Below are positions 1 to 64,000 of a stretch of 64,000 nt of DNA, one piece after another. The stretch is taken from assembly GCF_021130785.1 (NCBI RefSeq), contig NW_025777944.1:21251-85250 (forward strand), written 5' to 3'. The notes below the pieces were generated by a model that did not search any database, was not told the origin of the DNA, and worked only from the letters and a program-made list of their open reading frames with translations. The position numbers were made by a program, and so were the translations under genes. Every line of letters starts with the position of its first letter. Position 1 is the first letter of the stretch. This DNA is from Homalodisca vitripennis (taxonomy: Eukaryota; Arthropoda; Insecta; Hemiptera; Cicadellidae).

Positions 1-640
1 TAAAAATAAAAAACTTAATATTTTTAAACGAATTGTATATCAAACGAACATTGTATATCCTTACTAATTCTCAACACCTTTCTTAATCATTCACGTCTCT
101 CTGTACGAGTAATACTGTACCATTCTAGGTCAGTAGTTATCATCTTCTCTGTTCTTATTCTTCAGTGATTCCTCAATACGATTAACACTGGATTGTGTAC
201 CATTATATATCCGTACTAATTCTCAACTCCATTCTTAACCGTTCACGTTCTCTCTGTACGAGTATTACTATATATTACTATATTATCTAGCATTCTAGGA
301 CAGTACTGGTCATCTACTATGCTCTTATTCATTAGTGATTCCTCCATACCAGTAAAACTGGACTATGTATTATTCTACATGAATACTAAATCTCAACTCT
401 ATTTCATTAGTTCTAATGCTCTCCGTACTACTAGTATTATAAAATGTACAATTTTAGATCCATACTGATAATTTTCTCAAATATAGCTCACTAACTTCTC
501 TCGGTACAAGTAATACTGTATCATTCCAGGTACATTATTCTGATCATCTCGTTAGCGTTCTCACTGTACAGTAATACGTTATAATGTATCATTCTAGATC
601 CGTACTGCTCTGCTAGATTATCTCCCAGTTCTTTCTTTGT
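1..640 (+). repeat. S1 satellite block, 153-bp period (decayed)
   Basis: Tandem copies of a unit containing CTCTGTACGAGTAATACTG and CCATTCTAGGTCAGTAG. Equivalent points fall at about 95 and 247, a step of 152 bp. Further copies to about 600 are degraded. The unit is itself dimeric: CTCTGTACGAGTAA recurs at the half-unit with a different tail (ACTGGACTGTGTACC). A better-preserved block of the same family lies at 22512-23035. Seen directly by eye; percent identity was not computed. Confidence 0.85.
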
Positions 641-1130
641 TTAACTCTTTGTTGCTCAGTTAAAATATGATAATAGTATGAAAGTTAGTATTTCACATTT
701 CCTAATTTGATAACTTGAGAAAAAAGGGGAAAATAAAGAGATCTGAAATGTTTTAAGTTTTGAAGTCAAGGACCTGCACATCCCGATGGAAATGAACATA
801 GGTGCCAAATACTAGTTTCATAGACAATGTAGCATGTTGCTTAAAAAGGATCCATGCACGTTCTCATGCGTTTTAAGCAGTTCAGGAGGAAGAATACATT
901 TTATATGTATTCAAACTTATGAATAGAGACGAAGAGGAATTCGTTAATCGCTGAATTAGAAACTAAGAGTTTATTAAGTCATAAGACTCAATATGATTAG
1001 ATGATAAAATGTAAACCATGGTAGATTTTTTTTTAATATGGAAATTAGAGCTCCGAGGGTTTTGTATTACATATATTAGTATACCTATTTAGTTTTTTAC
1101 TGAATAAATTTTTGAATACAAGATGTTTTG
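641..1130. other. AT-rich spacer, nothing recognised
   Basis: No reading frame, transposon end or repeat that I can support. It separates the S1 satellite from a degenerate repeat stretch. Confidence 0.6.
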
Positions 1131-1134
1131 CTCC

Positions 1135-2040
1135 CATGGCCCTGATACAAGAAAATCAACACTAAAGTAATTCAGGTTGGAACAAAACTCGTCAGGTCTC
1201 AATATATATATATAAAAGGCAAGATTCCCACTCACTCATCACTAATTCTTAAACTTTCCAATGCGACAGAAAGTTGATATTTAGCACATTGTATGCTTCA
1301 TGAATTAAATAGAAAAACTATTGCATGATCATAAAGATCAATCATCCATAATGGTTGAAATAAAACTGTAACCATTATTAAAACCTTACTTTGTTTCTTA
1401 AAACTATACGATTATTGTGTAGTAATTCTCGAAGTAGGATAGATTTAAATTTTTAACAGATAAAATTTAATACATACACACTCCACATCACGTAAACAAA
1501 GAAAACCAAATAATGAGATCCCATTGGTGTTAGAATAGGATTGTAAACCTTGTTTTTTTTTTTATTATATTTTTGTTTTTCTAGCTTCTCAGTGTCCTAG
1601 AGAGATTAAAATTTCAAAGACAGGATCCTCATCACCTAAGTAAAAAAAAACTATTTTCATAAAGTTCAACCACCTATTAGTTGTAATTGAATTTAAAATT
1701 TAGAAGGACTCAATTTTTGTTATTCAAATTTTCTAAAGTCTCGGAAATATGCAATTTCACACACACGGGCCTCATGATGTACACACAACAATATAAAAAT
1801 TTCATAAAAATCAATCATCCACATTAGGTTTAGTAGTGCATTCCTTTACAAGAACTATATTTTGTTTGTTCATTCTCGTATGTCCTACAACGATGAAATT
1901 TCACACATATGTGCATTTGTGAAATTATACATAATTTATACAGACGTATAAAATGATTTTCATTAAGTTCAAGTACCCACACGAGTTTATATAGTGTCCA
2001 CATTTCTTGTTTCTTTGTTGTAACATTTATTCAATGATAA
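1135..2040 (+). repeat. degenerate tandem-like repeats, about 150-165 bp
   Basis: A loose unit recurs about six times (near 1145, 1325, 1500, 1655, 1800 and 1955). It is built round TTCATAAA-ATCAATCATCC or variants, followed by a GTTT-A/G-GT stretch. A second submotif, GTCCTA-GA-GAAATTTCA-ACA, precedes several copies. Copies are well diverged, so this is either an old tandem array or an internally repetitive mobile element. The boundary is approximate. Confidence 0.4.
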
Positions 2041-2099
2041 ATCACATGAAAAGCCATGCTGAATAATAAAAGAAAATATAGGATGAAATGGGTAGATTA

Positions 2100-2226
2100 T
2101 TTATATATATATATATATATTATATATTACATATATATATATATATATGTAATATATATATATATATGTATATTAATATATATATATATTTTGGTGCGTA
2201 TTTTATGTAATATATATATATGCAAC
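2100..2226. repeat. (TA)n microsatellite cluster
   Basis: Several TA runs separated by short interruptions. Low-complexity sequence with no coding meaning. Confidence 0.95.
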
Positions 2227-2229
2227 TAA

Positions 2230-3205
2230 TAAGGCATACAAAGCTAGATAAATTAAGAGGTTTTTATAATTATTGTTAATTTTTTTACTACCTTCATGTT
2301 TATCTATAAGACAAATATAAAACTGTCGGGTAACATCAATCTAAAGCACATGAAGTTATTGGGTGGATACAACTATTCTTATATTTTTGTGTTCAACTCT
2401 CATAGAGATTGAATAAAACTCTGTTAACTTTACAAACGAAATACTGAATTATACTTGGATTCGCAACATGGAACTGCATTTTGGTTTGATTACAGGCATG
2501 TACACAACAGCATGTTGGCGAACTTTTCCATTATCTACATAGTTTCATGACGAAAGGTTACAATAAATTGCAATGGAAACATTTTCTAAATCTCACCAAG
2601 TTTGTAGTAGAATAGTATAAGGGTTAAAAATCAAATTCCAGATTTACACTATAACACTGACTCATAAATTACTTTATCAAATTATACTAGATATTTTTTT
2701 AAATAGTAATAAATACACAATCCTATGCCTGTATACTTCATTGCTAACTTTAGAAATAATTCGGTAAGGAATCATAAAACCTTTTAATACTTAATTTTAT
2801 TTTGTTACAACACAATGTTGAGTATTGTTTGAAAATATGCGGTTTGCGATCCTCGTTTTTTATGCCTCGTGCTTTAAAAATATCTTAAGGTGTAATTTTC
2901 TATTGCTTAAAAATAAGAGTCTTGATAATGCCAAATATCTTTAACATATTCGTCATAAATATATCAGATTTTAATTTATGTATAAAGAGCCAAGTTTTTA
3001 GATTTCATTTCATTAATTTTATTATTCTTTTCAATTTATACTGAATTTTTTATTCTATCATTATTTGTATTATTGTTGTGTATTAATCCATTTTGAAACT
3101 AGATTGCACGTCGCTTGATGACGTTCCTCTATGTGCTGTAAAGTTTTAATACTTTTTACATACACTTTTCAAAATGTTTTGAAAATAAAATTTATTTGAG
3201 TTTAA
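2230..3205 (+). other. P1 block, left half (alpha unit)
   Basis: Non-coding. Parts of 2480-2900 match, in reverse orientation, sequence at about 43.9-44.4 kb; examples are TTGGCGAACTTTTCCATTA at about 2516 and CAACACAATGTTGAGTATTG at about 2809. The right half resumes after the retrotransposon at 8433. The LTR element has therefore split this block. Confidence 0.6.
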
Positions 3206-3210
3206 GTATG

Positions 3211-3523
3211 TGTAATGTATTGAATTACAATAATAATTATAATAATAATTATTATACATATTATAAATTGTTACTGGCAAGTTAAAGCCACAGCCAAAGG
3301 CCAACTGTATGATCTATGATGCTGTGACGTCATATGGGGTGATTAGTTTGAATAAATGCCATTGGCTGTTCTCATCACGCCACCAGATCACACCACCTAC
3401 TACCACTTCCAGTGTCCTGCCCTTGTCTCTCTCTCTGTTACCCTCCAACCTTAACCGAGCACAGTCGATGATGTAAACTAATTCAGTCTTTTTATTCCGA
3501 TTCCCCGTAACCCGTACACAACA
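3211..3523 (+). repeat. 5' LTR
   Basis: 313 bp, starting TGTAATGTATTGAATTAC and ending CCGTACACAACA. It contains AATAAA near 3351 and a CT-rich tract near 3425. Near-identical to the 3' LTR at 8119-8427. Confidence 0.96.
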
Positions 3524-3525
3524 AT

Positions 3526-3536
3526 TGGCGACGAGG
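3526..3536 (+). other. primer-binding site, tRNA-Ser(GCT) type
   Basis: TGGCGACGAGG begins 2 bases after the LTR. It is complementary to the 3' end (CCTCGTCG plus CCA) expected of animal tRNA-Ser(GCT), whose acceptor stem starts GACGAGG. The primer identity comes from remembered tRNA sequence, not a search. Confidence 0.75.
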
Positions 3537-3725
3537 TATTAATGCGATCCCGCGAGTGCAATGCAACCTGTTCGATTGTGCGTAAATAATTTCTCCGAAA
3601 ATTATAGTGGGAGGAAGTTGTGTCTGTAGTTTGGCGTCACGTGGACTCAAAATCGGTACATTTTGATGTTGGAAGACAAGGTCGTAAATTGGAACATTTC
3701 GTCTTTATTTAGTGAAACAGTAAAA

Positions 3726-4480
3726 ATGGCGGGAATTATTGGCGGAATCGGTGACTTCGACAAACAGTGCAGAAACTTGGAATTCGTATGTTGAACGATT
3801 TGAATTATTCGTTGACTGTAAACAGTATTAGTGACGACAAAAAGGTTAGTACGTTACTAACAGTCGTGGGGTGTGAAAACGTACAGTTTGTTACGAGATT
3901 TATGTACGCCGGACAAAACCTTCAGTGAAAAAGTTCGATGAATTAGGCGAAGTTAATTCAGGACCATTTGTACCCGAAGCCATCATTCATAGCTGAAAGG
4001 TACAAGTTCAGCAAAAGGAATCAGCAGGAAGGAGAATCAGTCGCAGAGTACATCGCCAGCCTCAAGAAGTTGTCCTGCATACTGCGAGTTTGGCGCATCC
4101 CTCAACGACTATCTCAGAGACAGACTGGTGAGCGGCATCAGGAGTGAGTCGACCAAGCAGAGGCTGTTGGGAGAGACCACCCTAACCTTCGACCAGGCTG
4201 TGAAAATCGTCTGCTCAGTGGAAGCGGCGGAGAAGAATGCGGCGGCATTGACAGTGAACGGCGGCAGCCGGGTCCAGCGGATGGCAGCGCATCACCACCC
4301 ACATGTGAGAGTCGGCGGCAGCGGTGGCAGCGCGAGCTACAACGCAAGGCACGAAGTCAAGGTGCAGTGTACGTGCTGTGGGCAGTGTGGTCACTATAGG
4401 AAGCAGTGCAAATTGTTTGGTGTTGTGTGTCACAAAATGTGGTAAAAGAAATCACATATCTAAGGTATGTCGATCTACTG
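3726..4480 (+). pseudogene. gag: gag, frameshifted
   Basis: The start is taken at ATG 3726, the first start downstream of the primer-binding site that opens gag-like sequence. Recognisable Gag pieces appear in alternating frames: a WNSYVERFELF-like stretch near 3772, a capsid-like stretch near 3985-4130, then an open piece 4128-4445 (LRDRLVSGIRSES context). The region ends with cysteine/histidine knuckles. The first is CGQCGHYRKQC. The second, ending in CGKRNHISKVC, straddles a frame change near 4440. At least four frame changes are needed to read it through, so it cannot make a normal capsid protein. The knuckles would bind RNA during packaging in an intact relative. Confidence 0.85.
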
Positions 4481-5110
4481 AAATTAGTAAGTTACCAGAC
4501 AATCAGCTTTCGAAAGTTAAGAAAGGTATATCTTATCAGTCTAATTTTCAAAACAAGAAAAACAAAGATTATAAGAAACATAATTTTGTAAATGATAGTT
4601 CAGAACTGTCAGATTCAAATAATTCTAAGAATTATGTTCAGAGTGATGAAAATCTTGAGAGTTATGTCGAGGACATACAGAATTTATTTAAAGTAAATGA
4701 AACTCGCCGTAAAAGAATTAGAGTTGACCCAATTAAGATTAAAGTCCTAGTGCAAGGTCGAGAAACCATATTTGAAGTTGATACTGGAGCTAGTGTCACA
4801 GTGTGTAGTGAGGATTTTTATGAAAATAATTTTAGTTCTTGTAAATTGTTAGAAAATGACCTAACTTTGAGTTCGTACACTAATGAACCTATTATACCTG
4901 GTGGGCAAAGTTAATGTTGATGTTTGCTATGAGAAAATACATAAATGCTTAGATTTGTATGTGATTAGAGGAGGTTCACATCCTTTAATGGGTCGTGATT
5001 GGCTTAAAGTACTGGGAGTTGACATTTCGTTTAAAAATAACTTGTGTGTTATAAACAGACCTATAGATAACAAGGCTAATTTCGAGACAATGACGTCCGA
5101 GCTAAACTAA
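4481..5110 (+). pseudogene. retroviral-type aspartic protease, split by a frameshift
   Basis: The open frame ending at 4914 carries the catalytic motif DTGA, with its Asp codon at 4780-4782, in the context FEVDTGASV. The C-terminal flap and helix part continues in a different frame (4883-5110). That part contains HPLMGRDWL, matching the hydrophobic LxGRDWL end of Ty3/Gypsy proteases. The halves overlap near 4885-4914, so a single indel breaks the gene. The protease would cleave the Gag-Pol polyprotein. It lies between gag and reverse transcriptase, as expected. Confidence 0.85.
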
Positions 5111-5385
5111 TCAATTTCCAGAAGTGTTCCACTGAGAAACTAGGTCAGTATACAGGCGAACCAGTAAAACTAAATCTAAAAGAAAATGCTAGACCTAGGT
5201 ATTTTAAGCCAAGACCGATACCATTCTCATTGAAAAGTAAGGTAGAAAAAGAACTACAACGCTTAGTTGACGAAACAAGTGTTAATTCCAGTAAGCAGCT
5301 CGGAATGGGGAAACGCCCATTGTACCAGTATTAAAAAAAGAACGGTGAAATTAGGCTATGTGGAGACTTTAAAGTTACTCTAATC

Positions 5386-7965
5386 ATGTATCTAGAAGTA
5401 GACAAGTACCCTATACCTAGAATAGAAGATTTATTTGCAAATTTACAGCATGGAGAACGTTTCTCTAAAATAGATCTTAGTCAAGCCTATATGCAATTAA
5501 AGTTAGACAGTGAGTCACAAAAATTATGTACAATTAGCACGCATAAGGGTCTTTTCTCATATAGTAGAATGCCTTATGGAATCTCATCAGCCCCAGGCAT
5601 ATTTCAAAGAGTTATTGAACAATCTTTGCATAATTTAGAAGGCATATCAGTGTTCATGGATGATATTCTTATCACCGCACCTAATAACGAAACTCATGTA
5701 AGTAGGTTGCAAGAGGTTTGTAAACGCCTGAGTGAAAAAGGATTTACCGTAAAGAAAGATAAATGTACATTCTTTGTAGACAAAATCGAGTATCTTGGTT
5801 TTAGTATCGATAAAGATGGACTGCATACCTCTGAATCTAAAATTAAAGCTATAAATCAAGCACCTGTACCTAAATCTGTCACTCAAGTCAAAGCTTTTAT
5901 TGGCTTGGTAAATTATTATGGAAAGTTTATCAAAAATTTGTCAACAATCTTGAGTCCGTTGTACAACTTGTTAAAAAAGGACGTGCCATTTGATTTTGAT
6001 GAAAAATGTCTCAAGTCATTTAGCCATGTCAAGGATGTTTTGACTAAAGCACCAGTTTTGGCGCATTATGATTCAAAGTTGCCTGTAAAACTAGCAGTAG
6101 ACGCAAGCTCGACAGGGCTGGGCTGCGTACTTAGTATCATAACCCCTGAAGGCGTTGAGAAACCTATTGCATACCACTCTCGTACTTTATCACCAGCAGA
6201 ATGTCAATATTCACAAATAGATAAGGAAGCTTTAGCAGTAGTATATGGAGTAAGGAAACTTCATCAATATTTGTATGGCCGAAAATTCACATTGTGTACT
6301 GATCACAAACCTTTAATTAGCATATTTGGACCGAAAAAGGGTTTACCTGTTTTCGCAGCAAGCCGATTACAAAGATACGCATTATTTTTAAGTGGATACA
6401 ATTTTGATGTACAGTATGTAAGGTCAGAAAAGCATGGTAACGCAGACGCATTATCACGCTTACCATTAAGCACTAAACACGTTGTAAATAATAACAATGA
6501 ACCAAGGTGGAAAGGTACCTATTTACACTGTATCGCTGAAAGTTCAGTACCTTTAACTTTTGAAGATGTAAAAGCTGAAACCCAAAATGATCCTATTATA
6601 AAACAAATACATAACTATGTGATGTACGGATGGCCAAATTTTTTGTCAGGAGAGAATAGGGAATTGTTACCTTATTTCCAAAGGAAGGACGAGCTAACAG
6701 TTGAGCATGGCATTGTTATGTGGGGATATAGAATTGTTGTTCCTAACAAGTTGCGTAGCTACATATTAAATGAGTTACACGCGAGTCACTTGGGAATTGT
6801 AAAAATGAAGTCAGTAGCAAGATCCTATATTTGGTGGCCAAATATAGATGAAAACATTGAAAGCCTAGCGAACAATTGCTCTTCCTGTCTTATGGAACGT
6901 TCTAGTCCTAGTAAGAGTAATCTACAGGTTTGGCACTATCCATCTATGCCATGGGAAAGATTGCATATTGATTACTTGGGTCCTTTCAAAGATAAGACCT
7001 ACTTGGTAGTAATTGATGCTTACACTAAGTGGTTGGAAGTATTTGAAGTAGGCTCTACTTCAGCTAAGCTAGCTATAGAAAAGTTAAGAGAACTATTTTC
7101 TAGATTTGGATTACCTGTCACTATCCATAGTGATAATGGACCACCATTTACCTCAGTTGAATTTAAAAATTTCATGCAACTTAATGGTATAAGACATACA
7201 TTTTCACCAGCTTATCATCCTCAGTCTAATGGTCAGGCTGAGAACTCAGTTAAGTATGCTAAACGTAAAATAAGATTGGCTTTTCAAGAAAATATTGATA
7301 CTAAAGTAGCCTTGAATAGGATGTTATTTGATTACAGAAACTCCGTTCATAGCACTACTAACGAGACACCTGCCAAATTAATGTTTAATAGACCACTAAG
7401 ATGCAGGCTAGATTTACTCAGACCTAATATAGCCAGAACTGTGCAATTAAAACAGGACAAACAAAAAGAATATTTTGGCGGTAGAAAAACGAGAATTCTA
7501 TTTCCTAATCAATCTGTATTAGTGAGAGATTATCGCTCTAAAGACAAATGGATAGAGGGCATTGTAATAAAACAGTTAAATAATGTAATGTATTCTGTTA
7601 TGACAAAAACTGGTCTAATTTGGAGTAGACATATTGATCAGCTGATAGGACTACACAGTAGTATTGTTGACAGTGACAGTCAAATTCCACCATCTCAGGA
7701 CCGTACAGTTGCGGAGCGTGAGACAGGCGCTCAGTGTCCGCCAACTCCAAGCCCAGTCAGAATTAGTAACACTGACCTCACTAGTTCAGCTGGTCTCTCC
7801 CCCTCCTCACCGCATCATACCTCTCCATGTCACATCACTACCCCTCATTCTAGACCACGTCTTTCTCTACCCTCAGCTGTTCCTTCTCCTGTCACTAGAA
7901 CAGCTGATCATACAAACAGATACCCAACTCGTATTAGGACACCTGTAGAGAAATTAAACTTGTAA
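5386..7965 (+). CDS. pol: Pol: reverse transcriptase, RNase H, integrase
   Basis: An 859-codon open frame. RT comes first: SKIDLSQAYMQL near residues 27-38 and the catalytic FMDD box at residues 90-93. RNase H follows, with D239, E281, D306 and D354 in the contexts LAVDASS, DKEALAV, TDHKPL and NADALS. Integrase then has an HHCC zinc finger (H464, H468, C498, C501) and a D529, D583, E619 triad with 35 residues between the last two (DD35E). The C-terminal part resembles the GPY/F-type module of Gypsy integrases and ends in a Pro/Ser-rich tail. The first RT motifs (PRPIPFSLKSKVEKEL and EIRLCGDFK) lie upstream at 5111-5385 in other frames, so ATG 5386 is an internal methionine and the true N-terminus is frame-broken. 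All catalytic residues seen are intact. Confidence 0.95.
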   Translation: MYLEVDKYPIPRIEDLFANLQHGERFSKIDLSQAYMQLKLDSESQKLCTISTHKGLFSYSRMPYGISSAPGIFQRVIEQSLHNLEGISVFMDDILITAPNNETHVSRLQEVCKRLSEKGFTVKKDKCTFFVDKIEYLGFSIDKDGLHTSESKIKAINQAPVPKSVTQVKAFIGLVNYYGKFIKNLSTILSPLYNLLKKDVPFDFDEKCLKSFSHVKDVLTKAPVLAHYDSKLPVKLAVDASSTGLGCVLSIITPEGVEKPIAYHSRTLSPAECQYSQIDKEALAVVYGVRKLHQYLYGRKFTLCTDHKPLISIFGPKKGLPVFAASRLQRYALFLSGYNFDVQYVRSEKHGNADALSRLPLSTKHVVNNNNEPRWKGTYLHCIAESSVPLTFEDVKAETQNDPIIKQIHNYVMYGWPNFLSGENRELLPYFQRKDELTVEHGIVMWGYRIVVPNKLRSYILNELHASHLGIVKMKSVARSYIWWPNIDENIESLANNCSSCLMERSSPSKSNLQVWHYPSMPWERLHIDYLGPFKDKTYLVVIDAYTKWLEVFEVGSTSAKLAIEKLRELFSRFGLPVTIHSDNGPPFTSVEFKNFMQLNGIRHTFSPAYHPQSNGQAENSVKYAKRKIRLAFQENIDTKVALNRMLFDYRNSVHSTTNETPAKLMFNRPLRCRLDLLRPNIARTVQLKQDKQKEYFGGRKTRILFPNQSVLVRDYRSKDKWIEGIVIKQLNNVMYSVMTKTGLIWSRHIDQLIGLHSSIVDSDSQIPPSQDRTVAERETGAQCPPTPSPVRISNTDLTSSAGLSPSSPHHTSPCHITTPHSRPRLSLPSAVPSPVTRTADHTNRYPTRIRTPVEKLNL

Positions 7966-8105
7966 ATAACTTACAGTACTTAAGGATGACATTTAATAAT
8001 GATATGTGTTATTTATATTTATATGTGTTTATTATATATTTATTATTACACTTGTATTGTTTAATTTATCTATGACTTGTGTGAATTCAATTTATTTTGA
8101 AATTT

Positions 8106-8118
8106 GGAAGGGAGGAAA
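8106..8118 (+). other. polypurine tract
   Basis: GGAAGGGAGGAAA lies immediately before the 3' LTR, the expected plus-strand primer site. Confidence 0.9.
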
Positions 8119-8427
8119 TGTAATGTATTGAATTACAATAATAATTATAATAATTATTATTATACATATTATAAATTGTTACTGGCAAGTTAAAGCCACA
8201 GCCAAAGACCAACTGTATGATCTATGATACTGTGACGTCATATGGGGTGATTAGTTTGAATAAATGCCATTGGCTGTTCTCATCACGCCACCAGATCACA
8301 CCACCTACCACTTCCAGTGTCCTGCCCTTGTCTCTCTCTCTGTTACCCTCCAACCTTAACCGAGCACAGTCGATGATGTAAACTAATTCAGTCTTTTATT
8401 CCGATTCCCCGTAACCCGTACACAACA
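8119..8427 (+). repeat. 3' LTR
   Basis: 309 bp, same ends as the 5' LTR. It lacks one CTA triplet in the CACCTACTACCACTTCC stretch and one T in a T run, and has about three substitutions. Confidence 0.96.
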
Positions 8428-8432
8428 GTATG

Positions 8433-8965
8433 GTATTGAACTCATGAACGATTAGCTTTGTTTGGGGCACCAGTTAGTAGTTTAAATTTTAAAATGAATG
8501 GAATAATTTACAACATGTCTAGAAAAACATTGTTGCAAATACTCTCCACGTGACACTCCAGTTCAGCTTTGCAAAGAATCTTGTTTTCTTAGGCAAGATA
8601 TCGTAATATTCTCCTCTCCCTTCACTGAGGATTATGATCAATGTTATAAGTCAGTTTTATTTGTTGGTGTAACAATTCCCTTATTATTTCCCTTCATATA
8701 CTTTAGGATTTAAATATTGAAAATATAAATGAATTAATTTCTTTTTTTCTTAATAAATTAAACTCAATGGTATTTAATATCACCATACAGCAATTTAAAA
8801 ATTAATTTGTATATATTATATATATTATATATTAAATATTTTTTTATAAACTAATATTAAACATTAAATTATCAGTAGGAACGCTTTATAAATGAAAGAA
8901 AAAAAAACCATTACACTAGAAAAGGTTTACTATTTATTTTAATACAATTATGTACAATAGTTATT
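8433..8965 (+). other. P1 block, right half with conserved island (alpha)
   Basis: Non-coding. The island at about 8540-8625 (CACGTGACACTCCAGTTCAG and CGTAATATTC) recurs inverted at about 43320-43470 and directly at about 56820-56920. The flanking sequence also aligns, for example CTTTGTTTGGGGCACCAGT at about 8457 with the reverse complement near 43510. Confidence 0.65.
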
Positions 8966-9262
8966 TTTATACATCGTGAGGCAGGCCCCCATGTGGTATG
9001 TATTCATACCAAAAAATAAGATACTGTAACAATACTTTTTAGACCCCCTAAACTGACCTTAAAGAACTCAATGGCATAATTCTAATATTTTAAAACTTCC
9101 CTAAATATCTCAATTTGTGGTTGGGAGTGATTTTTATAGATTTTTAATGTGAAAATGTGTTGTGTAATATATATCCTGTAATGTATGTACTTTTAACAAA
9201 GAACATTTTAGCAAAAATAAAATTTCATTATTCAAAAACAGTTTTTACAGGCTGTGCCAAAA
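8966..9262 (+). mobile_element. short MITE-like element (decayed)
   Basis: One end reads CGTGAGGCAGGC and the other AGGCTGTGCCAAAACTCC. The inverted copy at 42696-43005 has better-preserved ends, CAGGGTGAGGCAGAC and CAGGGTGTGCCAAAGC, next to TA. About 300 bp with no transposase. Ends starting CAGGGTG suggest a mariner-type non-autonomous element. Because flanks are shared with the other copy, it was present before the blocks duplicated. Confidence 0.45.
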
Positions 9263-9649
9263 CTCCTTTAAATGATTTATTGCGCCTTTCTTACTATAAC
9301 ATGCGAAAAAACTAAATATTTTAGAAGCTTATTTACCTATATATTCTTTCAAACAATATATAGAATATATTAATTTAAAAATATAATCAGCCTCACAACT
9401 ATTCTCACCATATTTTGCCAATTTAAAATGTATAATAACGTTTAAAGTATTCATTTAATATTTACATTGATTATTTCATGTAAAAAGTTGTCCCTTACTG
9501 TGTTTAGCATTTATTTGTTTTTATGAACACTTGTCATGTACTGGCCAACATTTTACCTCATAATATATTTATATTATATAACATTATACCCACGTTATAT
9601 TTGTAATAGAAGTTACACTATATAAGATAACCTCAGTTACTTGACTATA
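9263..9649 (+). other. paralogous spacer (alpha)
   Basis: Non-coding. It aligns loosely with 47380-47567 (for example ATTATACCCACGTTATATTT at about 9584 with ATTATACCTACGTTATATTT near 47506). Confidence 0.6.
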
Positions 9650-9805
9650 CTGCCGATTCTATGGTGCTGCAGTGGACCAAGGATAATTGATTTCACCCGC
9701 AGTATTCCCCACAGATGCAACATGAAAGGATGAAGAATATACGAGATACCCGGTGATATACGGCGGTGTAGTTGAATAACCAATGTGATTATGGTCTCCT
9801 GGTAG
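9650..9805. other. island 1, alpha copy
   Basis: The sequence from CCCACAGATGCAACATGAAA through GGTCTCCTGGTA (about 105 bp) is almost identical to 47627-47725 in beta. I see one difference, a Tyr-synonymous change in the minus-strand frame. The flanks are much more diverged. On the minus strand a frame of about 49 codons stays open (starting YLPGDHNHIGYS, ending STAAP then stop). On the plus strand a splice-like reading CCCACAG / ATACCCG-GTGATA is also possible. The gamma copy (28327-28462) changes mostly first and second codon positions, which argues against a conserved protein there. Function unknown. Confidence 0.6.
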
Positions 9806-10738
9806 ATACGAATATTTTATTGCATTACTATGTTTTCTTATTGAACGTTATTTAAATTAGTTTTGAAGTTAATTTTTCTAAAACCATAATTTTATTTAGA
9901 TGTGGTTTTTAGTTCTCAAAGTTACACATATAAATTTAACTTAGTATATATCACAGTATACATTATTAACATGTTTTGCATACACATTAATTAATTTATT
10001 ACATTAATATACATCGATCCTTACAAATTAATATTAGGCTACTGGTGCGTATTTAAACCGTTCTGAAACTCCTGATATATAAGTTATATGAAATATGTGA
10101 TTGAGGATGAACTGTTTAAAATACAGTTACTCACTGTTAGACGTGGTCATCAACTACTCAATTTCACGGTCGTTAGCTACTCGATTAACGGTCTTATCAA
10201 TAACGCCGCTCGATGAACTTTGACAAAATTGTGGATCAATATTTATTGCACAAAGGTATACATTATTGTATAATATGTATACAGTGATAAATAATAAACA
10301 AATGGATGATTATAACAAATGTCTTTTACAGAATTAACTCTGAATATTTATTTTGCTCCAACAAACAAGAGGAAGAACGGCTCGAAAGAAATTCTGATTG
10401 TTCCACTTTACACTAAAAGCCCACTTCACCTTCCGTTAGATAACAATGTCTCTCCTTTGTAATATTTTCCTGATTTTAATCTTAAATGGTTCTCAGTTAA
10501 TTGTGAAAAGAATATAATTAAACCATTTGTCGATGTTAATTAAGGCTTGCTTAAACGTAAGTTGCTTCATTCTGTAAAATGTATTCTATTTTAATATCTC
10601 AATAAAACAGTAAAAATTTATTTTTTCATGAATTAACGTAATTAAAACTTTAAAAAATGTATTTCATACCGAACTGATTGGTATTTTAGCACCGAATTTT
10701 TACATTTTTAAATACATTTCCTATAACATTCTACAAAT
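9806..10738 (+). other. alpha block carrying island 2
   Basis: Island 2 lies at 10392-10472 (GATTGTTCCACTTTACACTA ... AACAATGTCTCTCC). It recurs in all four units at about 29070, 48996 and 61763. No reading frame stays open in all four copies. The rest of the block aligns with 47780-49600, for example TTTCACGGTCGTTAGCTACT at about 10161 and near 48467. Confidence 0.65.
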
Positions 10739-10798
10739 ATATATATATATATATATTAATATTATTATTTTATTTTTAAATATATATATACATATATA
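10739..10798. repeat. TA-rich low-complexity tract
   Basis: A TA microsatellite abutting the mariner insertion. The last TA (10797-10798) would be the target duplication. Confidence 0.9.
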
Positions 10799-11339
10799 CA
10801 GGGTGATTCATGAAGTTCTCCCCCACTTCCACAGCACATTTTACTAGTAAAAATATTGAAAAAATGATATATAAACATATGGTCCGAAAAACGCTTCGTT
10901 AGCGAGTTACAGCTAGCGAACAGATTTCGCTTGAATTTCCTGGGTAAAGAGTAAAATAAAACCATACTGAACTTTTGGAAAGGTTAATTAAGTAAGAAAT
11001 ATCGTGGATTCTTATGTATTTTACCTGTATAAAGCTAATAAAAATAGGTTTCAGAACTGTACCTGTAGTAGTTTTGTTAGGGCTACTCTGGCTGTTGAGT
11101 AGTTTTTGAGGGGATTTAGGGTTAAATGCAAAAAATTGGGGCACGATACAATGTTTTTTTAAGTTTTATGTACAATAACTTTGTTAAATTGGTAATACAG
11201 TACATAAAATCAACAAACATTAATTGTAGAGAATTTAATTCTGAGAAAATTGATATAATCAAAGTCTAAAATAAAAACAGAAATAAGTACCAAAAAATCG
11301 ATTTTATTATCAGTATAACTTAACATTACTAGTTTTAAG
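10799..11339 (+). repeat. left terminal inverted repeat (~540 bp)
   Basis: It pairs with 12876-13375. Matching landmarks are GCTTCGTTAGCGAGTTACAGC, AGAATCCACGAT (inverse), GGGGCACGA (inverse) and AGTACCAAAAAATCGATTTT. The arms have diverged, with small indels, so this is not a fresh duplication. Confidence 0.9.
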
Positions 11340-11410
11340 CAAAATTAATCAGGTTGGGCCAACCGTACGCACCTTTTTATAATAGATGTTCGAAAATGAG
11401 GCCATCATTA

Positions 11411-13375: not shown

Positions 13376-13417
13376 TATATATAAAATTTCAATAAAGTTT
13401 GAATCGCAAAAAGTACT

Positions 13418-13614: not shown

Positions 13615-13620
13615 ATATAC

Positions 13621-50950: not shown

Positions 50951-50996
50951 ATAATTAAATCATGTTGTTGTTCAGATTTCTGCCTTTGTAAGTGTA

Positions 50997-51028
<32 letters not shown>
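50997..51028. repeat. TG/CG dinucleotide repeat
   Basis: TG run with a CGCGCG insert. Confidence 0.95.
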
Positions 51029-51029
<1 letters not shown>

Positions 51030-52638: not shown

Positions 52639-52767
52639 AACATTGCAGCTGATTTGGAAACTGGAACGGTAGTTGTTGACACAGGATATGTTTACAGTGT
52701 ACTCAGTGGAAACTGGAACAGTGTTGTCCACTGCACTAATGGTAGTCACTCTTCATTTTGGTGACAC
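52639..52767 (+). other. island 4, beta copy
   Basis: Partner of 17951-18081. After CATTGCAG (AG 52647-52648) a plus-strand frame is open from 52651 to a TGA at 52762-52764 (37 codons). Alpha carries a 1-bp insertion near its start. Confidence 0.55.
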
Positions 52768-54189
52768 TAATTGCAGTTGGACGGTGAGGGGAAGATAGGG
52801 TAAACTTGTTTGCTAGTCTAATCCTTTTAACTCGTACTACAAAATTATGTAACATTTCTATTTTATTGGTTTAGGGAGATAAAAATATGTAATAATTGTA
52901 AGACAGTAATTTAGTTACAATTAAATAAATTGTATGTTGCACATTATTACTTTGATATTTTAAGTTTATACATAAGAAACAAAATAATTTAGTGTTTTAT
53001 TATAATACATAAATACGGTAACTTTGTATAAATCTTTAATAAAAGGTTCATACCAAATAATGTTGTAACATGTTGGCAGACATTCTATAAATATAGTGTT
53101 TACATTAAACAGAAAAAATAAAACGGCAGATTTCGAACAGAATCGGTTGAAAAAACTCAAACGAAAAACTTTTATTTTATTTAAATATGTTTAACTATAA
53201 TAGTTTTAATACTTAAAAATTATTAATGGGACTCAAAATAGTGCATCACATTAACATTTAAATAAAATAAATCTCAGATCTTTTTTGTTATAGTTGTTAA
53301 TACAATATCTGAAGGTTTCCTCTATAACTACATATGACAGAATAGACATGTTATAACCTTTTAGAACTTATCTGAGATTTAATAAAATCCATTTTTATGG
53401 TTATACGCCGAGAACATTTGTAATTATATTTGAGGTTTTAATTTTTATGTTCCCAAGTGAGCTTCTAATTAGGTAAAGTTTAACTGTGATTAATTACTAT
53501 ATGAGGTTAGTTAATTTTAGCATTACAAAAACCATAATATGCTTCACCTTTAACTGTAGATCTGTAAACAAAGCTATTACTTGTTTATTCCAAAATCAAT
53601 TTTTTAGTTTTGGCCATCGATCCCTAATTATTAGTCTATTTTGAATTAGAGTGAAGTAAGTTATAGTGACTCTTTTACCCTTATTTCACGTCTTCAGAAG
53701 AAAGACAGAATGTCTCTCCATTGGGTTATATGTATTAGTAAAAGACAGTTTTCGAAAGAATAACTGCACGTTTTCCAATCACGAAGCTTTGTTCTTGGGA
53801 AATGAACTCTTCTTTTGACGCGACCAGAGGGATTTCGCTGATTGACCATCCCTATATAATAATACACTTTATATTTATCTTTTAAACAGGATAATACAAT
53901 AAAAACATGATGTAAAGATCATTTACAATGTATGACACATACTTCATCTAAAAAAATATTAATAATTGATGGTTAACAGAAATACTATTCTATATTAAAA
54001 AAGCAAACAAAGTAGAGTTCCTACAAGGCAAGCCGGTTCGGAAGATTCTCACATCATCATATAAGTTATGTTGAGCAGCAAAAGGAAATTAAGTTTAAAG
54101 ATGCATTGCACATTTTAGAATACAGTATACACATGAAATGAAGATATTGAAATAATCAGATTAAACTTCCTTACTGAATAGCTCAGTGT
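52768..54189. other. AT-rich spacer, nothing recognised
   Basis: The first 100 bp still align weakly with alpha 18100-18220. After that no supported feature. Confidence 0.5.
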
Positions 54190-57110: not shown

Positions 57111-59450
57111 ATAAGTATTTTCAACTTAAAGATAGCAACACTCAGTTTATAATGGCCACCAATTAACAAATATAAATGTTCAAAATCATTTAGTTAGTTT
57201 AATTAACATAAAGCAACATTGTTTTCATTACAAATCAAAAATAATATGTAGTTTGATGTGACTGAATGTTTCAGTCATTTTATACATCCAAAATCAATCT
57301 TGAAGTACTTTATTTAGACTTCGTTTCCAAAATAAACGATCACGATATTTGTTCAGTTATGCTGTAGTGTCAATCATTAACATCACGATTGTTTGGGCTT
57401 TCAGTAATATTTCTCTACACACCATTCTCCGTAACCTTTCATTGTACGTGTAACAAACCGACCTGATATTCAGTCACGTGATAGACGAGTAAACAGATTT
57501 GGTTGTTTATTAAACAACTCTCGCAACATTGCTATCGATGATTATTTGATTATGTTAACATAGTTTTATGAATACTTAGCTAATTTATGAATATGCTTAG
57601 CTAAATAAAAATTCAAATTTATGATTCGTATTCTAATTCTTTGATATTAAACTACTTAATGTCATATTAGAACTGCAGCCTCCAAAAGTGTTAGTAGAAT
57701 TAAGAAATTGTTGTTTATTTTTACCTATATTTACATTAATCAGCGTATCTAAAGGTGGATTCTCTCTGATTTAGTTATGTACATACGACAAATAAAAAAT
57801 AATAAACCTTTCATATGTGATTTATATTTCAAGAAGCATTTGGTCACTTTAATGAGCCATGGGTCTTTTTTATTTTTGGGATTTACTATACGTGCCTGTT
57901 AGTGTCTTGCAAACCAGTCCTGCAAATATAAGAATGTAACGTGAATTATAATGTGATACCATTTTGTGCTTCCACAAATTACTCGATAGGTGTGTATATG
58001 GCTGCGTTTGTATAGTTTGTTTGTTCACTTAGGTCAAGAGGCTGAGGAAACTGCGCATTGCACACCGTTGTGCTTGATTCCGGAGTGACAGGATATGCAG
58101 GAAGGATAAGGTTGGTGGTAGGCGCGCCGATTTTGTCGAAATCCCATGAGGAGGGATTTATGTCATGTCACCTTGGAAGAGGTAAGGCCAACTCTGCTCC
58201 AGCCTGTACCAGTCAAAAGCGGGTAGGAGAAAGTACTCCCTTATATTTAGGCTAGCAACAAATTCAACTCCATTCCAACAGTCGCCTTCCGCAGTAAACT
58301 AGACTATCACTCAACCCTTTTACCCCGATGTCTAAAAGTTTTCTATTAGTAATTTTTTCTAATAGTAAAATATTTCATTTACTTAAAATAACGATAGGGA
58401 ATAATGTATCTAAACATGTAATTTGCTTGTCTCGTTTAATTTTATGCGATAGCAGTCTGTAGCTTGAAATATATGAGTACATACACATACCTTAAAACAT
58501 TGGTATTCTTATAATCAAACGCATATCATGAAGCCTGGTTAAAAATAGCTAAACATTGCTACTTAAAATAAACTATAAGCTTTTGTGGATTGATAAATAG
58601 TTTAGACTTTCCCCGACTTCAGGGGTATCATTAAATGCCTATTTCTATAATATTTAAAAAATAAATTAAAACCCAATGCACTCCTTTAAACATATTTCCC
58701 AAACTTAAGTTTTACAAATAATTACACTCCATGTTCCAAATACTACCATTTTCAATAGTTAAATCTCAAAATATAGATTAAAAATTAGTAAAACTGAAAA
58801 TTTAAGTAAATTGCAGTGATAGTAACAAATTGAGCTCAATAAATTACAAGTTGAGTACCAAAGAGGTTACTTAAAACAAAATACCAATAAATGGATCAAA
58901 TACAACACAATACACCCCACAACACAACATAGAGCGAAGACTTTGTGCACCTAAGTACATCTATGCTGCTAGGTCATGGAAAAATTGTTAAATGTGATTG
59001 AACTGACAATAAGTTTCCTTTTTAAATTTATAACAAGACTCAACTTCCTGTTAGTTCCGGTATGAGAGGAAGAGAAGAAATCTATGCAAAGTTCATTCAA
59101 CATTTCAAAGGAATTGTTTTGAATAACCGATTATATTAGGTTTTGCGTTATAAAAGATTTTTTAGTATGGAAAGAAATGTAGGTTAATAAACACGCATAT
59201 CTTTTCTGTAATTTTACTATAAAATGGCATATCACAACGTCATGAAAGACAGCCAGTTTTGAGTGCCTTATGTGCAAACTTTCAAAACTTTCTTCATTAA
59301 ATTGCATTTTATAACAGTGTTTTTTTTTTTTTTACCATATAGGGTTTAATATCGTCACCGACGCAGTTTTTAGATAATAACTTTGCCTTTGTTATCTACA
59401 TTACACTTCTGATTAAGCACTGCAAAAACTGAATATGTGAATTAAACTTA
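57111..59450. other. spacer with one splice-flanked segment
   Basis: Mostly featureless. 58033-58181 is GC-richer and flanked by TTTGTTTGTTCACTTAG and GGAAGAG/GTAAGG, good acceptor and donor signals. All three plus frames contain stops, so if transcribed it would be a non-coding exon. Confidence 0.35.
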
Positions 59451-60660
59451 AAATGTAAAAATGCTTAAAGTTCTTAGGTGAACTTCAGTTAAAGTGGCGA
59501 CAGCTGTATAAATTTCAGTTAAATTTGGTTTATAATTTATGAATATTTATGGGTTTTCTCCAATTAAAAAATTATTCATCAGAAGTTATTAAGATTAGTG
59601 CTAAGCAAGCCCTTCATTTTTATTATACCGACATGTAAGGTCACAATACCTGATGAATAAATTATGGGATATGACCTTCACAAAATTGTTTTAAGAAAAA
59701 CGTGTGCTTACTTATTTAACGAAGAGTTCAAATTATTAGTAGTTTTGTAAAAGTACAATATACAAAAGTATAAAGTAAAGTTTTGATAAAAGATTCATCC
59801 TTAAAACCATAAACCAAATTGAATAAAAATAATAATAATCTTAAAGAGCATAGTTTACCGAACTGTCAGTTTCATAGGATTTATGCGGCTAACTTACTGT
59901 GAAGTTTATTAGCGGCCTTACATAACGTCAAGGTTATCTTAAAGCCTCAATGGATTTGAGAATGATTGCACTTTGACTTTACGATCGTCATTTTCCTGAA
60001 TAAATTAGTTTCCTATTACAACGCGTTCTGGTTACCATTTCTGCCCAAGGCATACTACACGTTCTGATAAGTCTTGTTCCTAATAAGAGCCAGCTTTATT
60101 TAATAAAAACGACTATTACACATAGAACAATGTTAAACCTCATGAACCTTTACGTCCTTATCTTTGGTCGTGTCGTTATGGGAGATGTCTTATTAAAAGT
60201 TATAATAGTTGAGCGTCCAAATACCTTACTGTTTTCTTCTAAAGTATATACTATTTTGAGTGTTTCAACTGTAGAGCTTGAAAAAGTTGATATTCTTTAC
60301 TGGACGACGTTTAAAATATCGGAAAAATAGAAACCTTTAAAATAAGACATATCCTATAATTCTAAAATTAAGGTTGTAAAAGTGCATTCGGTTTAAAATT
60401 GTTCTATTAGGACGACAATCAAGATGACCGTCAGTACAGCCGGCTCTTAAGCATGGGTCAAAATGAAAATTCACTTCAGAGCTAAAACCAAGGAATGAAA
60501 GAAATGGACGCTGAGAAAATGGTTCCATGTAAAATTGCAAAACAAAATCATAAATAAACGTTGAAAAACCTATACCATTATCATATGAAAATAAGAACCT
60601 AGAATTACTGACCGATACATTTGTTATTAATCGACAAATAATCGTGTACCTTAAAAAGGT
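59451..60660 (+). other. D block (delta)
   Basis: Matches gamma 23160-24320, with the core at 59840-60020. The mariner found after gamma D is absent. Confidence 0.7.
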
Positions 60661-62000
60661 GGTGTATTTTATAAATATGACTTATATTTAATATGTATAC
60701 AAAATATAGATTGTATTATATGTAGGTAGGTTGTGGTACGATATATACTATATATAGTTTTAGTATTTAGATTCCTAGGTGCAGGAAAGTAAAGCATTAA
60801 AAGTTTAATACGATAAGTGTTTAAACTATTTATTTAGAGGTCAACCCGTTCAAACATTTTTGTATTTAAATTACAGAGAGTTGAATAACATAAATAAATG
60901 TAACAAATTTTAATGCATATTTATATATGCATTATTTATATTTTAATGTATTGAGTATATTTTAATGCATTTGAACGCTTTACAACAAGCGGCTTATATG
61001 AAAAGAGCAATGTTATTGCAATCATAGTTGAATAACCATTGTGATTATGAACATGCTAGTTAGATAAAACTTAACTTAACTTCCCTTGTTAGATAAAACT
61101 TTTGTATTACTTTATGTTTTTCTGTCGGGGATTATTTGAACGAGTTATTAATTTAATTTGTTTAATAATAATTTTATTTGTCCATGGTTTTTAGATCACC
61201 AATGATCTAATATACTTAATTAAGCTATTCTAACGTTAGACTCCATATATGTCGGGCAATATTAAATGGTACCGCACAAAAAATAGATGTAGTCGTATGT
61301 CTTTTGCTGATGTGGAGTCAAATGATTTTTATAAGTTAGCATTAAACCGCACGCAATGTGACTTGTTCACCTGTTTAACATTTTTATAGTGAAATCCTCA
61401 AATCCATAGGTTTGGGTTAAGACCATTTAAAGGTTTTGTTTTTAAACTTCCCTTGACAGCCCTATTTTAGAGCAGTGAACGTAATATGACTATGGAATAG
61501 TTTGCATCTTACTTACATAAATTTCTATTCATTATTATAAAGACCATTTATTACTGAGATTAATAGAACTTTGAAGTTAACTTTACCGTAATGTAATTTT
61601 GAGCACTACTTTAATACACAGTAACATCGCACAATAGCTGGGTAAAAATATTAATTAATGTTAAACATAAAGAATCACAGTAATTATTATAAAACCCTCC
61701 CAGATTTAAATAACAATGAATCTTTATTTTGTGCCAACAAACTCTTACTACTCGAGACAAATTCTGATTGTTCCACTTTACACTAAAAGCCCACTTCACC
61801 TTCCGATCAGTAACAATGTCTCTCCGTTGTAAACACTTCCTGATTTTTATGTTTCTATCCAATTCTAAGGAATGTTCAATAATGAAATAACATCCGTTAT
61901 CGAGATAAATCCTTCATTTCCACTTATGAAGAACAATATTATATCACTTTAACGTCGATGCTAATTAAGTATATGTGTTAGATATTTGTAACTTGAAATA
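60661..62000 (+). other. island 2 block (delta)
   Basis: Matches gamma 28470-29270, with island 2 at 61763-61842. An island 1 trace (GTTGAATAACCATTGTGATTA) lies at about 61028. An 83-codon minus frame (61611-61862) is open here but closed in the other units. Confidence 0.7.
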
Positions 62001-62818
62001 ACCCTAAATATTTATTGAAAATACTAATATTATTAAAATAATAAAATTTTACTTTTTTAATAATTGCAACTCCCAAGTTAACAAGGACATATCAAAAAGG
62101 CGTTGAATGATAAATAATAGTTATTTTTATTGATATTTTCGAGTGTAGAAAGTTACTTCATTTACAGATAGTGGTTGTACCCTAGATAGATAATCAAATT
62201 TAAAAAATACTTTAAAATTGTTTAAAATTCTTCTAAAAGTAAAAACCTTTTTTAAGGATTGAAAGGAAAAAGGTTTGGAAAAAATGCTCGAAGTTATTGG
62301 CTATAAAGACTTTAAAACTTATATAATTTGTATTACTGTTATAATTATTATTTTATAGTGTTATATAATACATATTTCTATTGTAGATTATTATGATTGG
62401 GTCTTAAAATCTGGACATTACAGTGTTTGCTTACTACTTTCTGAAATCTCAGCCGCACAAACCTCCTGTTTGGCTGAAATTTATAGATGATATTTTTCAT
62501 GATATGGGAACATTGTAATGCTTTACTGGAAACATCTAAAACATCTCAATACAATTTCCGCTTTTAAAATTTACTTGGAAGTCTTCTTCTAAAACTGTTA
62601 CGACTAACAAAAAACATAAATTACTGTAAAGGAAACGTAATACTACACAATGCTAATATACTAATACTTGCCAATCAGAATATAGCCCTGAACCAACAGC
62701 TGAATTAGTTGGTTTTGGTTGTTTTTATGCTTTGTTTTGGTGGTGTTATACACATTTTTTTTTTGTGCTTGGAATTTTAATTAGTGCTATTGGAGTACGA
62801 AGTTTTTTATTTTTCCAG
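62001..62818. other. AT-rich spacer
   Basis: No supported feature. It ends in a pyrimidine tract (TTTTTTATTTTTCCAG). Confidence 0.5.
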
Positions 62819-62970
62819 TTAAGCCAGGTAGTTGGAAAGTAATACAAAATCCAGAGGAATTTTACAAAAAAATCTCAGAAATTGCGACCGTAAAGATTTT
62901 CAGCAAAGACTGCTATGTCCTTGGTTTCAAACATTGTGCACATTCAACCCTACTAATCAAGGGCTTTTAA
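62819..62970 (+). CDS. candidate coding exon, unknown product
   Basis: A strong acceptor (TTTTATTTTTCCAG, AG at 62817-62818) leads into 49 open codons (from 62821) and a TAA at 62968-62970. The peptide begins KPGSWKVIQNPEEFYKKISE and continues with TVKIFSKDCYVLGFKHCAHS. It has charged and hydrophobic residues in a natural mix, with Cys and His spaced as CY...HCAH, but no domain I can name. A second frame stays open past the stop (about 62955-63090), so a 1-bp deletion may have shortened a longer coding stretch. No copy in gamma. It could be a retroposed gene fragment or a true exon. Only the frame and splice site are seen. Confidence 0.35.
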
Positions 62971-63202
62971 AAATTTCCAAATCTCAAGAAACTATCTTGG
63001 TTACCCAAAAAACTTACAGTCCATTGAGAACAAGAAAATTGGAATAATCTATAAGAGCTACAGGTTTTTGAACGCAACTACAGCACCCACGGCTAATTGA
63101 ACAAAACTATGATTAAATTTTACTTATCCAATTTATTACTTGTTTAGGCGGGATGAACATTTAATGCATTTGTACTCTTCTGGCTAGGGTACCAAAAAGA
63201 GA

Positions 63203-63206
63203 TATA

Positions 63207-63237
<31 letters not shown>
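63203..63237. repeat. TA microsatellite
   Basis: Interrupted TA run. Confidence 0.93.
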
Positions 63238-63329
63238 GTTATACACATACGATAAGATTCAAACACTTAGATTTAAAACTTACAATAAAGGATCAATATA
63301 TATTTATTTACTATGTTATAATTATATAG

Positions 63330-63967
63330 TTATTATTATGTTACACATGCTAATTTCATGTATACATTAACTTTATATTATGAGAGTGTAAAACAAAATA
63401 TTTGGATATAAATTAGTGGCAGGAGGCATTTCACAAATGCGACCGATGCAATCGTTGAGCGGCTACCCAATGTTACCAACACAATACAGCACCATCATCA
63501 CATGGCCCTGATATATATCCGCAGTCTATTTATCAATTGGTCAGAACGGAAATACTTGTATTACTATTGTTTGAAACGTTGTTTTCAAATGTTTGTTTTA
63601 ATATAAACCGCAATATTATGTCGAATTTAAGAACTAGTATTAATTTCCAAAGTTAGTTGATTTATTCTATGTGTACTGTTGAATGTATAAATATTTGACC
63701 AACACTGAAAAATTCATTTTTTAAACATGTTATAAAGTACCTAGCTATAGACGATTAGTAGGTAAAAGTTGCTGTGCAGTATACACTGCGTTCATATTAC
63801 AGTCGAAAAGATAGTAAAACTTGGTACTTACACAATACACAAACATTTTCTCATGGTTTGCATCGACAGTACCCGTTTATCAAATTGAGACATCATCCGC
63901 GAAAAGTTTACACGGATGACAATTTAGACGGAAGCGGCTAACATATTTTTACCCCCATCAATTGTAG
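63330..63967 (+). other. P7 block (delta)
   Basis: Partner of 33970-34628. Alignable nearly end to end. Confidence 0.75.
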
Positions 63968-64000
63968 TAAAAACCTCGTTTATTCGAACCTCGTTTATCC
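63968..64000 (+). mobile_element. pogo/Tigger-like left end, cut by window edge
   Basis: AGTAAAAACCTCGTTTATTC and CCTCGTTTATCC match the left end at 34629. The rest lies outside the window. Confidence 0.7.

What the first reader, a model, noticed from the sequence alone, without database searches (positions are those of the whole stretch)
1..64000. Four ancient paralogous units in a two-level (dimer of dimers) arrangement
Ordered landmark blocks recur in the same orientation. Island 2 is at 10.40, 29.07, 49.00 and 61.77 kb; island 1 at 9.7, 28.4 and 47.6 kb (trace at 61.0); J at 15.3, 31.1 and 50.6 kb; H at 19.3 and 36.0 kb; D at 23.6 and 59.9 kb; P7 at 34.0 and 63.3 kb; S1 at 0 and 22.5 kb; S2 at 20.1 and 39.1 kb. 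Units 1 and 3 share blocks that 2 and 4 lack (M, island 4), and 2 and 4 share D and P7. That pattern predicts tandem duplication of a roughly 15-19 kb unit, then of the pair. Such large, decayed, satellite-bounded tandem units with almost no genes are unusual and may continue beyond the window.
Basis: partly seen in the sequence, partly recalled or inferred. Interest (0 to 1): 0.85.

Follow-up and report, generated by a model that had tools for sequence, protein, structure and literature searches.

The report
Twice-duplicated gene-free insect DNA block
A gene-poor stretch of what looks like an insect genome was copied in tandem, then the pair was copied again; most of the copied DNA has drifted apart, but some short stretches that do not code for protein stayed nearly unchanged, which suggests they do something, perhaps gene control.

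Summary
Four collinear units share landmark blocks at the stated coordinates. A 39-bp stretch of island 2, with three variable sites, occurs exactly four times in 64 kb. The two-level order is strongly supported for the isl1-isl2 segment, the only one kept in all four units: ((1,3),(2,4)) takes 87 informative sites against 5 and 3, and lnL is better by 225. Divergence outside islands is similar for units 1-3 (K2P 0.17-0.29) and 2-4 (0.18-0.28), as one duplication of the pair predicts.

Corrections: M is inverted in unit 3 and has a third copy before unit 4. Minisatellites S1 (up to 93% alike) and S2 (94-96%) are shared by units 1 and 2 only and are poor evidence for the old events.

What it is: decayed tandem segmental duplications in non-coding, probably insect, DNA. 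Some cores (isl1 98% over 112 bp, K2 95% over 139 bp) stand far above 67-73% surroundings, without coding signal, excess RNA structure or an Rfam match; six of eleven blocks tested show no such core. Best reading: paralogous conserved non-coding elements, probably cis-regulatory. That function is inferred; no second species or flanking contig could be searched.

The parts
2273..19519 (+). Unit 1 (M, isl1, isl2, R, J, K, H), interrupted by later insertions
   Evidence: Collinear with unit 3 (9.28-18.34 kb to 47.19-53.04 kb) and in islands with unit 2
23122..36190 (+). Unit 2 (D, isl1 with extra local copies, isl2, J, P7, H)
   Evidence: Collinear with unit 4 (23.12-34.67 kb to 59.41-64.00 kb)
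47188..53041 (+). Unit 3 (isl1, isl2, R, J, K1, K2); no H found
   Evidence: Collinear with unit 1; H not found at E 1 with a profile
59405..64000 (+). Unit 4 (D, isl1 trace, isl2, P7), cut by the window end; no J found
   Evidence: Collinear with unit 2; J not found at E 1 with a profile
9693..9804 (+). Core of island 1 in unit 1 (unit 3 copy 47616-47726)
   Evidence: 112 columns 98.2% identical against 72.5% for the rest of its block, p=0.001 (floor of 1000 permutations); aligns with 28339-28453 in unit 2
27979..28194 (+). Two extra partial local copies of island 1 in unit 2 (27979-28136 and 28133-28194)
   Evidence: Profile from units 1+3, E=1.9e-15 and 1.4e-7, no hit on the reversed window
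10324..10480 (+). Island 2, unit 1; 39-bp core at 10394-10432
   Evidence: Pattern found in exactly four places, 0 in 100 shuffles
29010..29155 (+). Island 2, unit 2; core at 29070-29108
48925..49080 (+). Island 2, unit 3; core at 48997-49035
61700..61860 (+). Island 2, unit 4; core at 61764-61802
14988..15642 (+). J, unit 1 (30815-31393 unit 2; 50319-50941 unit 3)
   Evidence: Profile from units 1+3 finds unit 2 at E=8.4e-46
16266..16426 (+). K1 core, unit 1 (unit 3 51379-51539); overlaps the start of a 78-bp minisatellite, 5.7 copies in unit 1 and one in unit 3
   Evidence: 91.9% over 161 columns against 70.9%, p=0.048, uncorrected; minisatellite
17942..18080 (+). K2 core, unit 1 (unit 3 52629-52766)
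   Evidence: 95.0% over 139 columns against 66.6% for the rest, p=0.001; below the shuffle maximum in units 2 and 4
19268..19428 (+). H core, unit 1 (unit 2 35936-36096)
   Evidence: 91.9% over 161 columns against 66.3%, p=0.024, uncorrected
23595..23768 (+). D core, unit 2 (unit 4 59836-60007)
   Evidence: 88.5% over 174 columns against 65.3%, p=0.008
33982..34666 (+). P7, unit 2 (unit 4 63318-64000)
   Evidence: 80.7% over 703 columns; internal core not significant, p=0.21
8428..9361 (+). M proximal part, unit 1 (inverted copy 42616-43549; third copy about 56800-57828)
   Evidence: third copy E=1.8e-18
3211..8427 (+). Ty3/Gypsy LTR element inserted in M; LTRs 3211-3523 and 8119-8427
   Evidence: LTRs 97.8% identical, K2P 0.0098; RT, RNase H and integrase domains; the parts of M on either side lie one base apart in unit 3 (43550 and 43548)
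49..550 (+). Minisatellite S1 (second array 22494-23045)
   Evidence: Up to 93% between arrays (204 columns), 81% over 440; no match in units 3 and 4
20095..20304 (+). Minisatellite S2 (array 39061-39582; diverged copy 21194-21600)
   Evidence: 94-96% between units 1 and 2; no match in units 3 and 4

Best explanation
A stretch of non-coding DNA, in what is probably an insect genome, was tandemly duplicated (A to AB), and later the pair was duplicated again (AB to ABA'B'), most simply by unequal exchange. Indels, an inversion of M and insertions of transposons then broke the copies up. Shown: the four units, their order, the quartet topology for the one segment kept in all four, similar divergence for the two younger pairs, and some cores that differ far less than their flanks. 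Inferred: that these cores are held by purifying selection as cis-regulatory (enhancer-like) conserved non-coding elements acting on a gene outside the window.
For: Collinear same-strand blocks and profiles from one pair of units finding the other pair. Quartet 87:5:3, delta lnL 224.9. K2P outside islands 0.17-0.29 for 1-3 and 0.18-0.28 for 2-4. Cores of 95-98% in 67-73% surroundings for isl1 and K2; weaker for D (p=0.008), H (0.024) and K1 (0.048), uncorrected for 11 tests. Isl2 kept in all four units. No codon signal: over the 22 listed frames of at least 25 open codons, changes fall 70, 63 and 70 times on codon positions 1, 2 and 3 (frames overlap), and non-synonymous codons outnumber synonymous ones in 21 and tie in one. 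None of 16 strands folds beyond z -2. No Rfam match in the islands. GC of 13 pieces 0.27-0.43: above the flanks in 10, equal in two, below in one.
Against: Paralogues within one genome cannot separate constraint from short gene conversion, and isl1 and K2 are extreme only between units 1 and 3. Isl1 also aligns with unit 2 in the core but not in its flanks, which argues for constraint, but K2 has no counterpart there. 6 of 11 blocks tested showed no significant core, and H and K1 would not survive correction for 11 tests. H is close to a fold signal (z -1.79 and -1.99). No chromatin, expression or other-species data. Target gene unknown.
Confidence: 0.6

Rival explanations
1. The islands are small exons of a tandemly duplicated protein-coding gene family with long introns.
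For: Island size (about 60-200 bp), GC above flanks in 10 of 13 pieces, tandem units. Some islands have a shared open frame (for example isl2 in units 2 and 4, 34 codons).
Against: Changes fall about evenly on the three codon positions (70, 63, 70 over 22 overlapping frames). Isl1 has 6 mismatches (and 17 gap columns at its edge) in 146 columns and K2 11 mismatches in 152, so third positions did not drift either. Pfam on 298 of the 431 listed pieces of at least 40 aa gave six families at E 0.0016-0.0094, one member each, where about three are expected by chance at E 0.01; the two traced are below their cut-offs and lie in transposons, four were not traced.
Confidence: 0.1
2. The islands are exons of tandem long non-coding RNA genes.
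For: Non-coding, spaced blocks, same orientation.
Against: No structure signal beyond z -2 and no Rfam match there, though neither is required of such RNAs. Long non-coding exons usually evolve faster than seen here (recalled).
Confidence: 0.15
3. The cores are patches of gene conversion between units 1 and 3, not constrained elements; the rest is neutral decay after two duplications.
For: The strongest cores (isl1, K2) are 1-3 specific in degree.
Against: Isl2 is kept in all four units, including pairs from the older event whose other DNA hardly aligns. The unit 2 match to isl1 centres on the same core and is lost in its flanks.
Confidence: 0.2
4. The units are large transposable elements or a higher-order satellite.
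For: Tandem arrangement, minisatellites near units 1 and 2.
Against: No shared terminal repeats showed up in the self-comparison (not searched for otherwise). Apart from inserted transposons no element genes were found in what was scanned. Spacing is irregular, with four copies in the window.
Confidence: 0.05

Closest known systems
Tandem segmental duplication (low-copy repeats)
   Same: Kilobase-scale direct copies, nested rounds of duplication, broken up by later insertions and an inversion
   Different: Old enough that the first-round copies align mainly in islands; no gene of its own found in the units
Duplicated conserved non-coding elements (dCNEs) and genomic regulatory blocks
   Same: Short non-coding elements kept in paralogous regions while the DNA around them is lost
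   Different: A review (PMC5728398, passages seen) says most CNEs are single copy and the non-unique ones in human appear to stem from whole-genome duplication; here copies are tandem, four-fold, without a visible gene, and conservation across species is untested
Higher-order repeat satellites (recalled)
   Same: Two-level (dimer of dimers) relationship
   Different: Spacing of 13-20 kb, four copies in the window, no sign of homogenisation across the array apart from S1, S2 and perhaps some cores

Membership tests
Tandem segmental duplication | Adjacent copies over 1 kb in direct orientation with collinear content | tested here: met
Tandem segmental duplication | Identity of 90% or more (usual operational cut-off, recalled) | tested here: not met
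   The seven between-unit blocks over 600 columns are 69-81% identical: an ancient, decayed case
Tandem segmental duplication | Copies real in the chromosome, not an assembly artefact | tested here: inconclusive
   Divergence of 0.17-0.29 substitutions per site outside islands is too high for duplicated haplotypes; a wrong join of contigs cannot be excluded
Duplicated conserved non-coding element | Elements conserved well above their flanks between paralogous places | tested here: met
   isl1 and K2 strongly, D, H and K1 weakly; 6 of 11 blocks not significant; isl2 by four-way identity
Duplicated conserved non-coding element | Not protein coding | tested here: met
Duplicated conserved non-coding element | Conserved between species | not testable with these tools
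   No insect genome collection; own-genome search unanswered 12 of 12 times
Duplicated conserved non-coding element | Enhancer activity or link to a developmental gene | not tested
   No gene other than transposon genes and a tRNA-like gene found in the window
Protein-coding tandem gene family | Changes concentrated on third codon positions in a shared open frame | tested here: not met
Structured RNA genes | Folding better than shuffles or a match to a known family | tested here: not met
   (H closest, z -1.99)
Large transposable element array | Element genes in each unit | tested here: not met
   Only separate transposons
Large transposable element array | Terminal repeats and target-site duplications at unit borders | tested here: inconclusive
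   None apparent in the self-comparison; borders are too decayed to define

The most novel reading that the evidence does not exclude
A tandem, two-level array of long-range regulatory (or boundary) modules that expanded without its target gene: units keep a shared set of slowly changing non-coding elements, local copies of isl1 were added in unit 2, and units have lost different members since, a case of regulatory subfunctionalisation inside one gene desert.
Probability: 0.2. Interest if true: 0.65.

Novelty: new member of a known kind. Interest (0 to 1): 0.42.

Why it matters
Most conserved non-coding elements are described as single copy (PMC5728398, passage seen). An array in which the same elements were copied twice in place, with much of the DNA around them erased between the older copies, gives internal replicates: which parts of an element stay fixed in all four units can be read off one genome, and each unit can be tested separately for activity.

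Tried and rejected
Protein-coding islands: rejected on codon positions and on Pfam scans of 298 of 431 pieces. The open frame made by the 78-bp minisatellite (16291-16821, minus) gave three Pfam families at or above their cut-offs (DUF4116, PPR, Trans_reg_dom), but no single stretch passed and the scores add up over repeats, so they were set aside. Structured RNA or microRNA: rejected (the only sub-threshold hit, mir-297 at 15892-15960, E 0.31, overlaps a TA array). A further copy of D: D resembles the block R to the right of isl2 in units 1 and 3 (R3 against D2 scores 217, above 2000 of 2000 shuffles and 152 of 152 real windows; R1-D2 p=0.0015, R3-D4 p=0.002, but R1-D4 p=0.33), while separate profiles give only E=0.43 one way and nothing the other: left open. 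Two exact-pattern scans of viral contigs found nothing, which says little because insect DNA is not expected there. Literature: six searches (listings only, capped at 8 to 15 rows), three of them empty; no paper on tandem gene-free conserved element arrays in insects was seen in these listings, which does not show there is none.
Full report
Setting. The window is 31% G+C, has only three closed open frames of at least 150 aa, TA and GT microsatellites and one tRNA-like gene. The one long gene is the pol of a Ty3/Gypsy element at 3211-8427. Of 5210 proteins found at E 1e-30, the best 120 are listed: the top one (67% identity) is unnamed, one at 65% bears a bacterial bin name, and the best named animal ones are from leafhoppers (Homalodisca vitripennis 60%, Macrosteles quadrilineatus 60%), then a damselfly (55%) and mostly moths and butterflies. 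The host is thus probably an insect, perhaps a hemipteran; this rests on a mobile element and is weak.

The observation. In a more sensitive unit-by-unit search, with microsatellites, minisatellites and the LTR element masked, 26 hits are below 1e-12, and the best hit against reversed subjects is 9.3e-12; at E 0.01 the reversed controls give 23, 43, 11, 32, 12 and 28 hits against 29, 51, 13, 51, 15 and 19 real ones, so only the strong hits count. By pair of units the 26 are: 1-2 four, 1-3 ten, 1-4 one, 2-3 four, 2-4 five, 3-4 two. The same-strand hits run in the same order in both units, with two exceptions: a copy of M at 56.8 kb, and the two 3-4 hits, which are alternative alignments over the same region. 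Profiles built from one pair of units find the other pair: isl2 from 1+3 finds units 4 and 2 at 1.1e-27 and 3.4e-24, isl1 from 1+3 finds unit 2 at 3.9e-30 and unit 4 at 5.6e-8, J from 1+3 finds unit 2 at 8.4e-46; best reversed-window controls for these three were 6.6e-4, none and none.

Two levels. Only the isl1-isl2 segment is present in all four units. In its alignment 1-3 (83.3%) and 2-4 (75.7%) are the close pairs and the other four lie at 59-62%. Informative sites split 87:5:3, gap patterns 19:6:9, and the likelihood test rejects both other trees by 224.9 units. K1 and K2 were found only in 1 and 3, P7 and the 28.7-kb block only in 2 and 4. D was found only in 2 and 4, apart from its doubtful likeness to R. 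Outside islands K2P is 0.29, 0.28, 0.29, 0.17 and 0.25 in five stretches of 1-3, and 0.28, 0.23, 0.18, 0.18 and 0.27 in five of 2-4, so one event can have made both pairs. These values come from locally alignable stretches and are lower bounds. With recalled insect rates of a few substitutions per 1e9 sites per year this would be tens of millions of years; the rate is not from a call. The LTR pair differs about 25 times less (K2P 0.0098).

M is inverted in unit 3, has a third copy at about 56.8-57.8 kb (E=1.8e-18), and was split in unit 1 by the Gypsy element: its two parts flank the element, while in unit 3 they lie one base apart (43550 and 43548). S1 and S2 are very alike between units 1 and 2 (up to 93%, and 94-96%) compared with the rest of that pair, and have no match in 3 or 4 at E 1e-5; they either spread later, are homogenised or are constrained, so they should not count as landmarks of the old events. 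H was not found in unit 3, nor J in unit 4.

Insertions. Unit 1 has 3.9 kb between R and J where unit 3 has 0.2 kb; it includes an element with long inverted ends at about 10.79-13.38 kb (arms 87.7% alike) and a weak DDE_3 trace. Unit 2 has 3.7 kb between D and isl1 where unit 4 has none; it includes an element with 35-bp inverted ends at 24320-25692 and a weak DUF4817 trace, and a second inverted pair at 25719-25791 / 26431-26503. The ends of the first two elements share the letters GGTGATTCA.

What the islands are. Within aligned blocks mismatches are clustered: isl1 112 columns at 98.2% against 72.5% for the rest, K2 139 at 95.0% against 66.6% (both p=0.001, the floor of 1000 permutations), D p=0.008, H p=0.024, K1 p=0.048, uncorrected; six further blocks of the 11 tested (the segment between isl1 and isl2, J, the 28.5-29.3 kb segment, P7, M and the 46.2-kb repeat) were not significant, p 0.21-0.86. 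Isl2 lies in blocks too short for this test, but its 39-bp core is in all four units with three variable sites. Of 13 pieces examined, none shows coding evolution: over the 22 listed frames changes fall 70, 63 and 70 times on the three codon positions (frames overlap). None of 16 strands (8 islands) folds beyond z -2; the nearest is H at -1.99 and -1.79. Pfam on 298 of 431 pieces of at least 40 aa gave six families at E 0.01 or better, one member each, against about three expected by chance; the two traced (DDE_3, DUF4817) are below their cut-offs and in transposons, the other four were not traced. The islands are therefore most simply conserved non-coding sequence; enhancer function is an inference from class, as clusters of such elements surround developmental genes in metazoan genomes and many act as enhancers (start of the abstract of PMC5585340, listing).

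Limits. Every comparison is between copies inside one 64-kb window. Constraint and gene conversion cannot be fully separated. The genome holding the window could not be searched in 12 of 12 tries, so neither further units nor the neighbouring gene are known.

Noticed in passing
3211-8427: Ty3/Gypsy LTR element with near-identical LTRs (97.8%), pol frame of 859 aa open; closest named animal relatives in leafhoppers.
   Followed up: partly
13417-13486 (-): tRNA-like gene called tRNA-Ala with anticodon GGC, 44 bits, next to the inverted-end element; GGC is unusual for eukaryotic Ala (recalled), so it may be a tRNA-derived repeat.
   Followed up: no
16363-16807: 78-bp minisatellite, 5.7 copies at 98%, matching a single-copy stretch in unit 3 at 51476-51558; 78 is a multiple of three, so frames stay open on both strands and give spurious Pfam sums.
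   Followed up: partly
23558-23800 and 10470-10700 / 49425-49650: Block D of units 2 and 4 resembles the block right of isl2 in units 1 and 3; if real, a rearrangement or a fifth decayed unit. Inconclusive.
   Followed up: partly
46227-46543 and 47914-48216: A local 0.3-kb direct repeat at unit 3 (73%).
   Followed up: no
60120-60449 / 23940-24157: The tail of D matches itself in inverse orientation (E 1.5e-16 in unit 4, only 0.051 in unit 2), like a small palindromic element.
   Followed up: no
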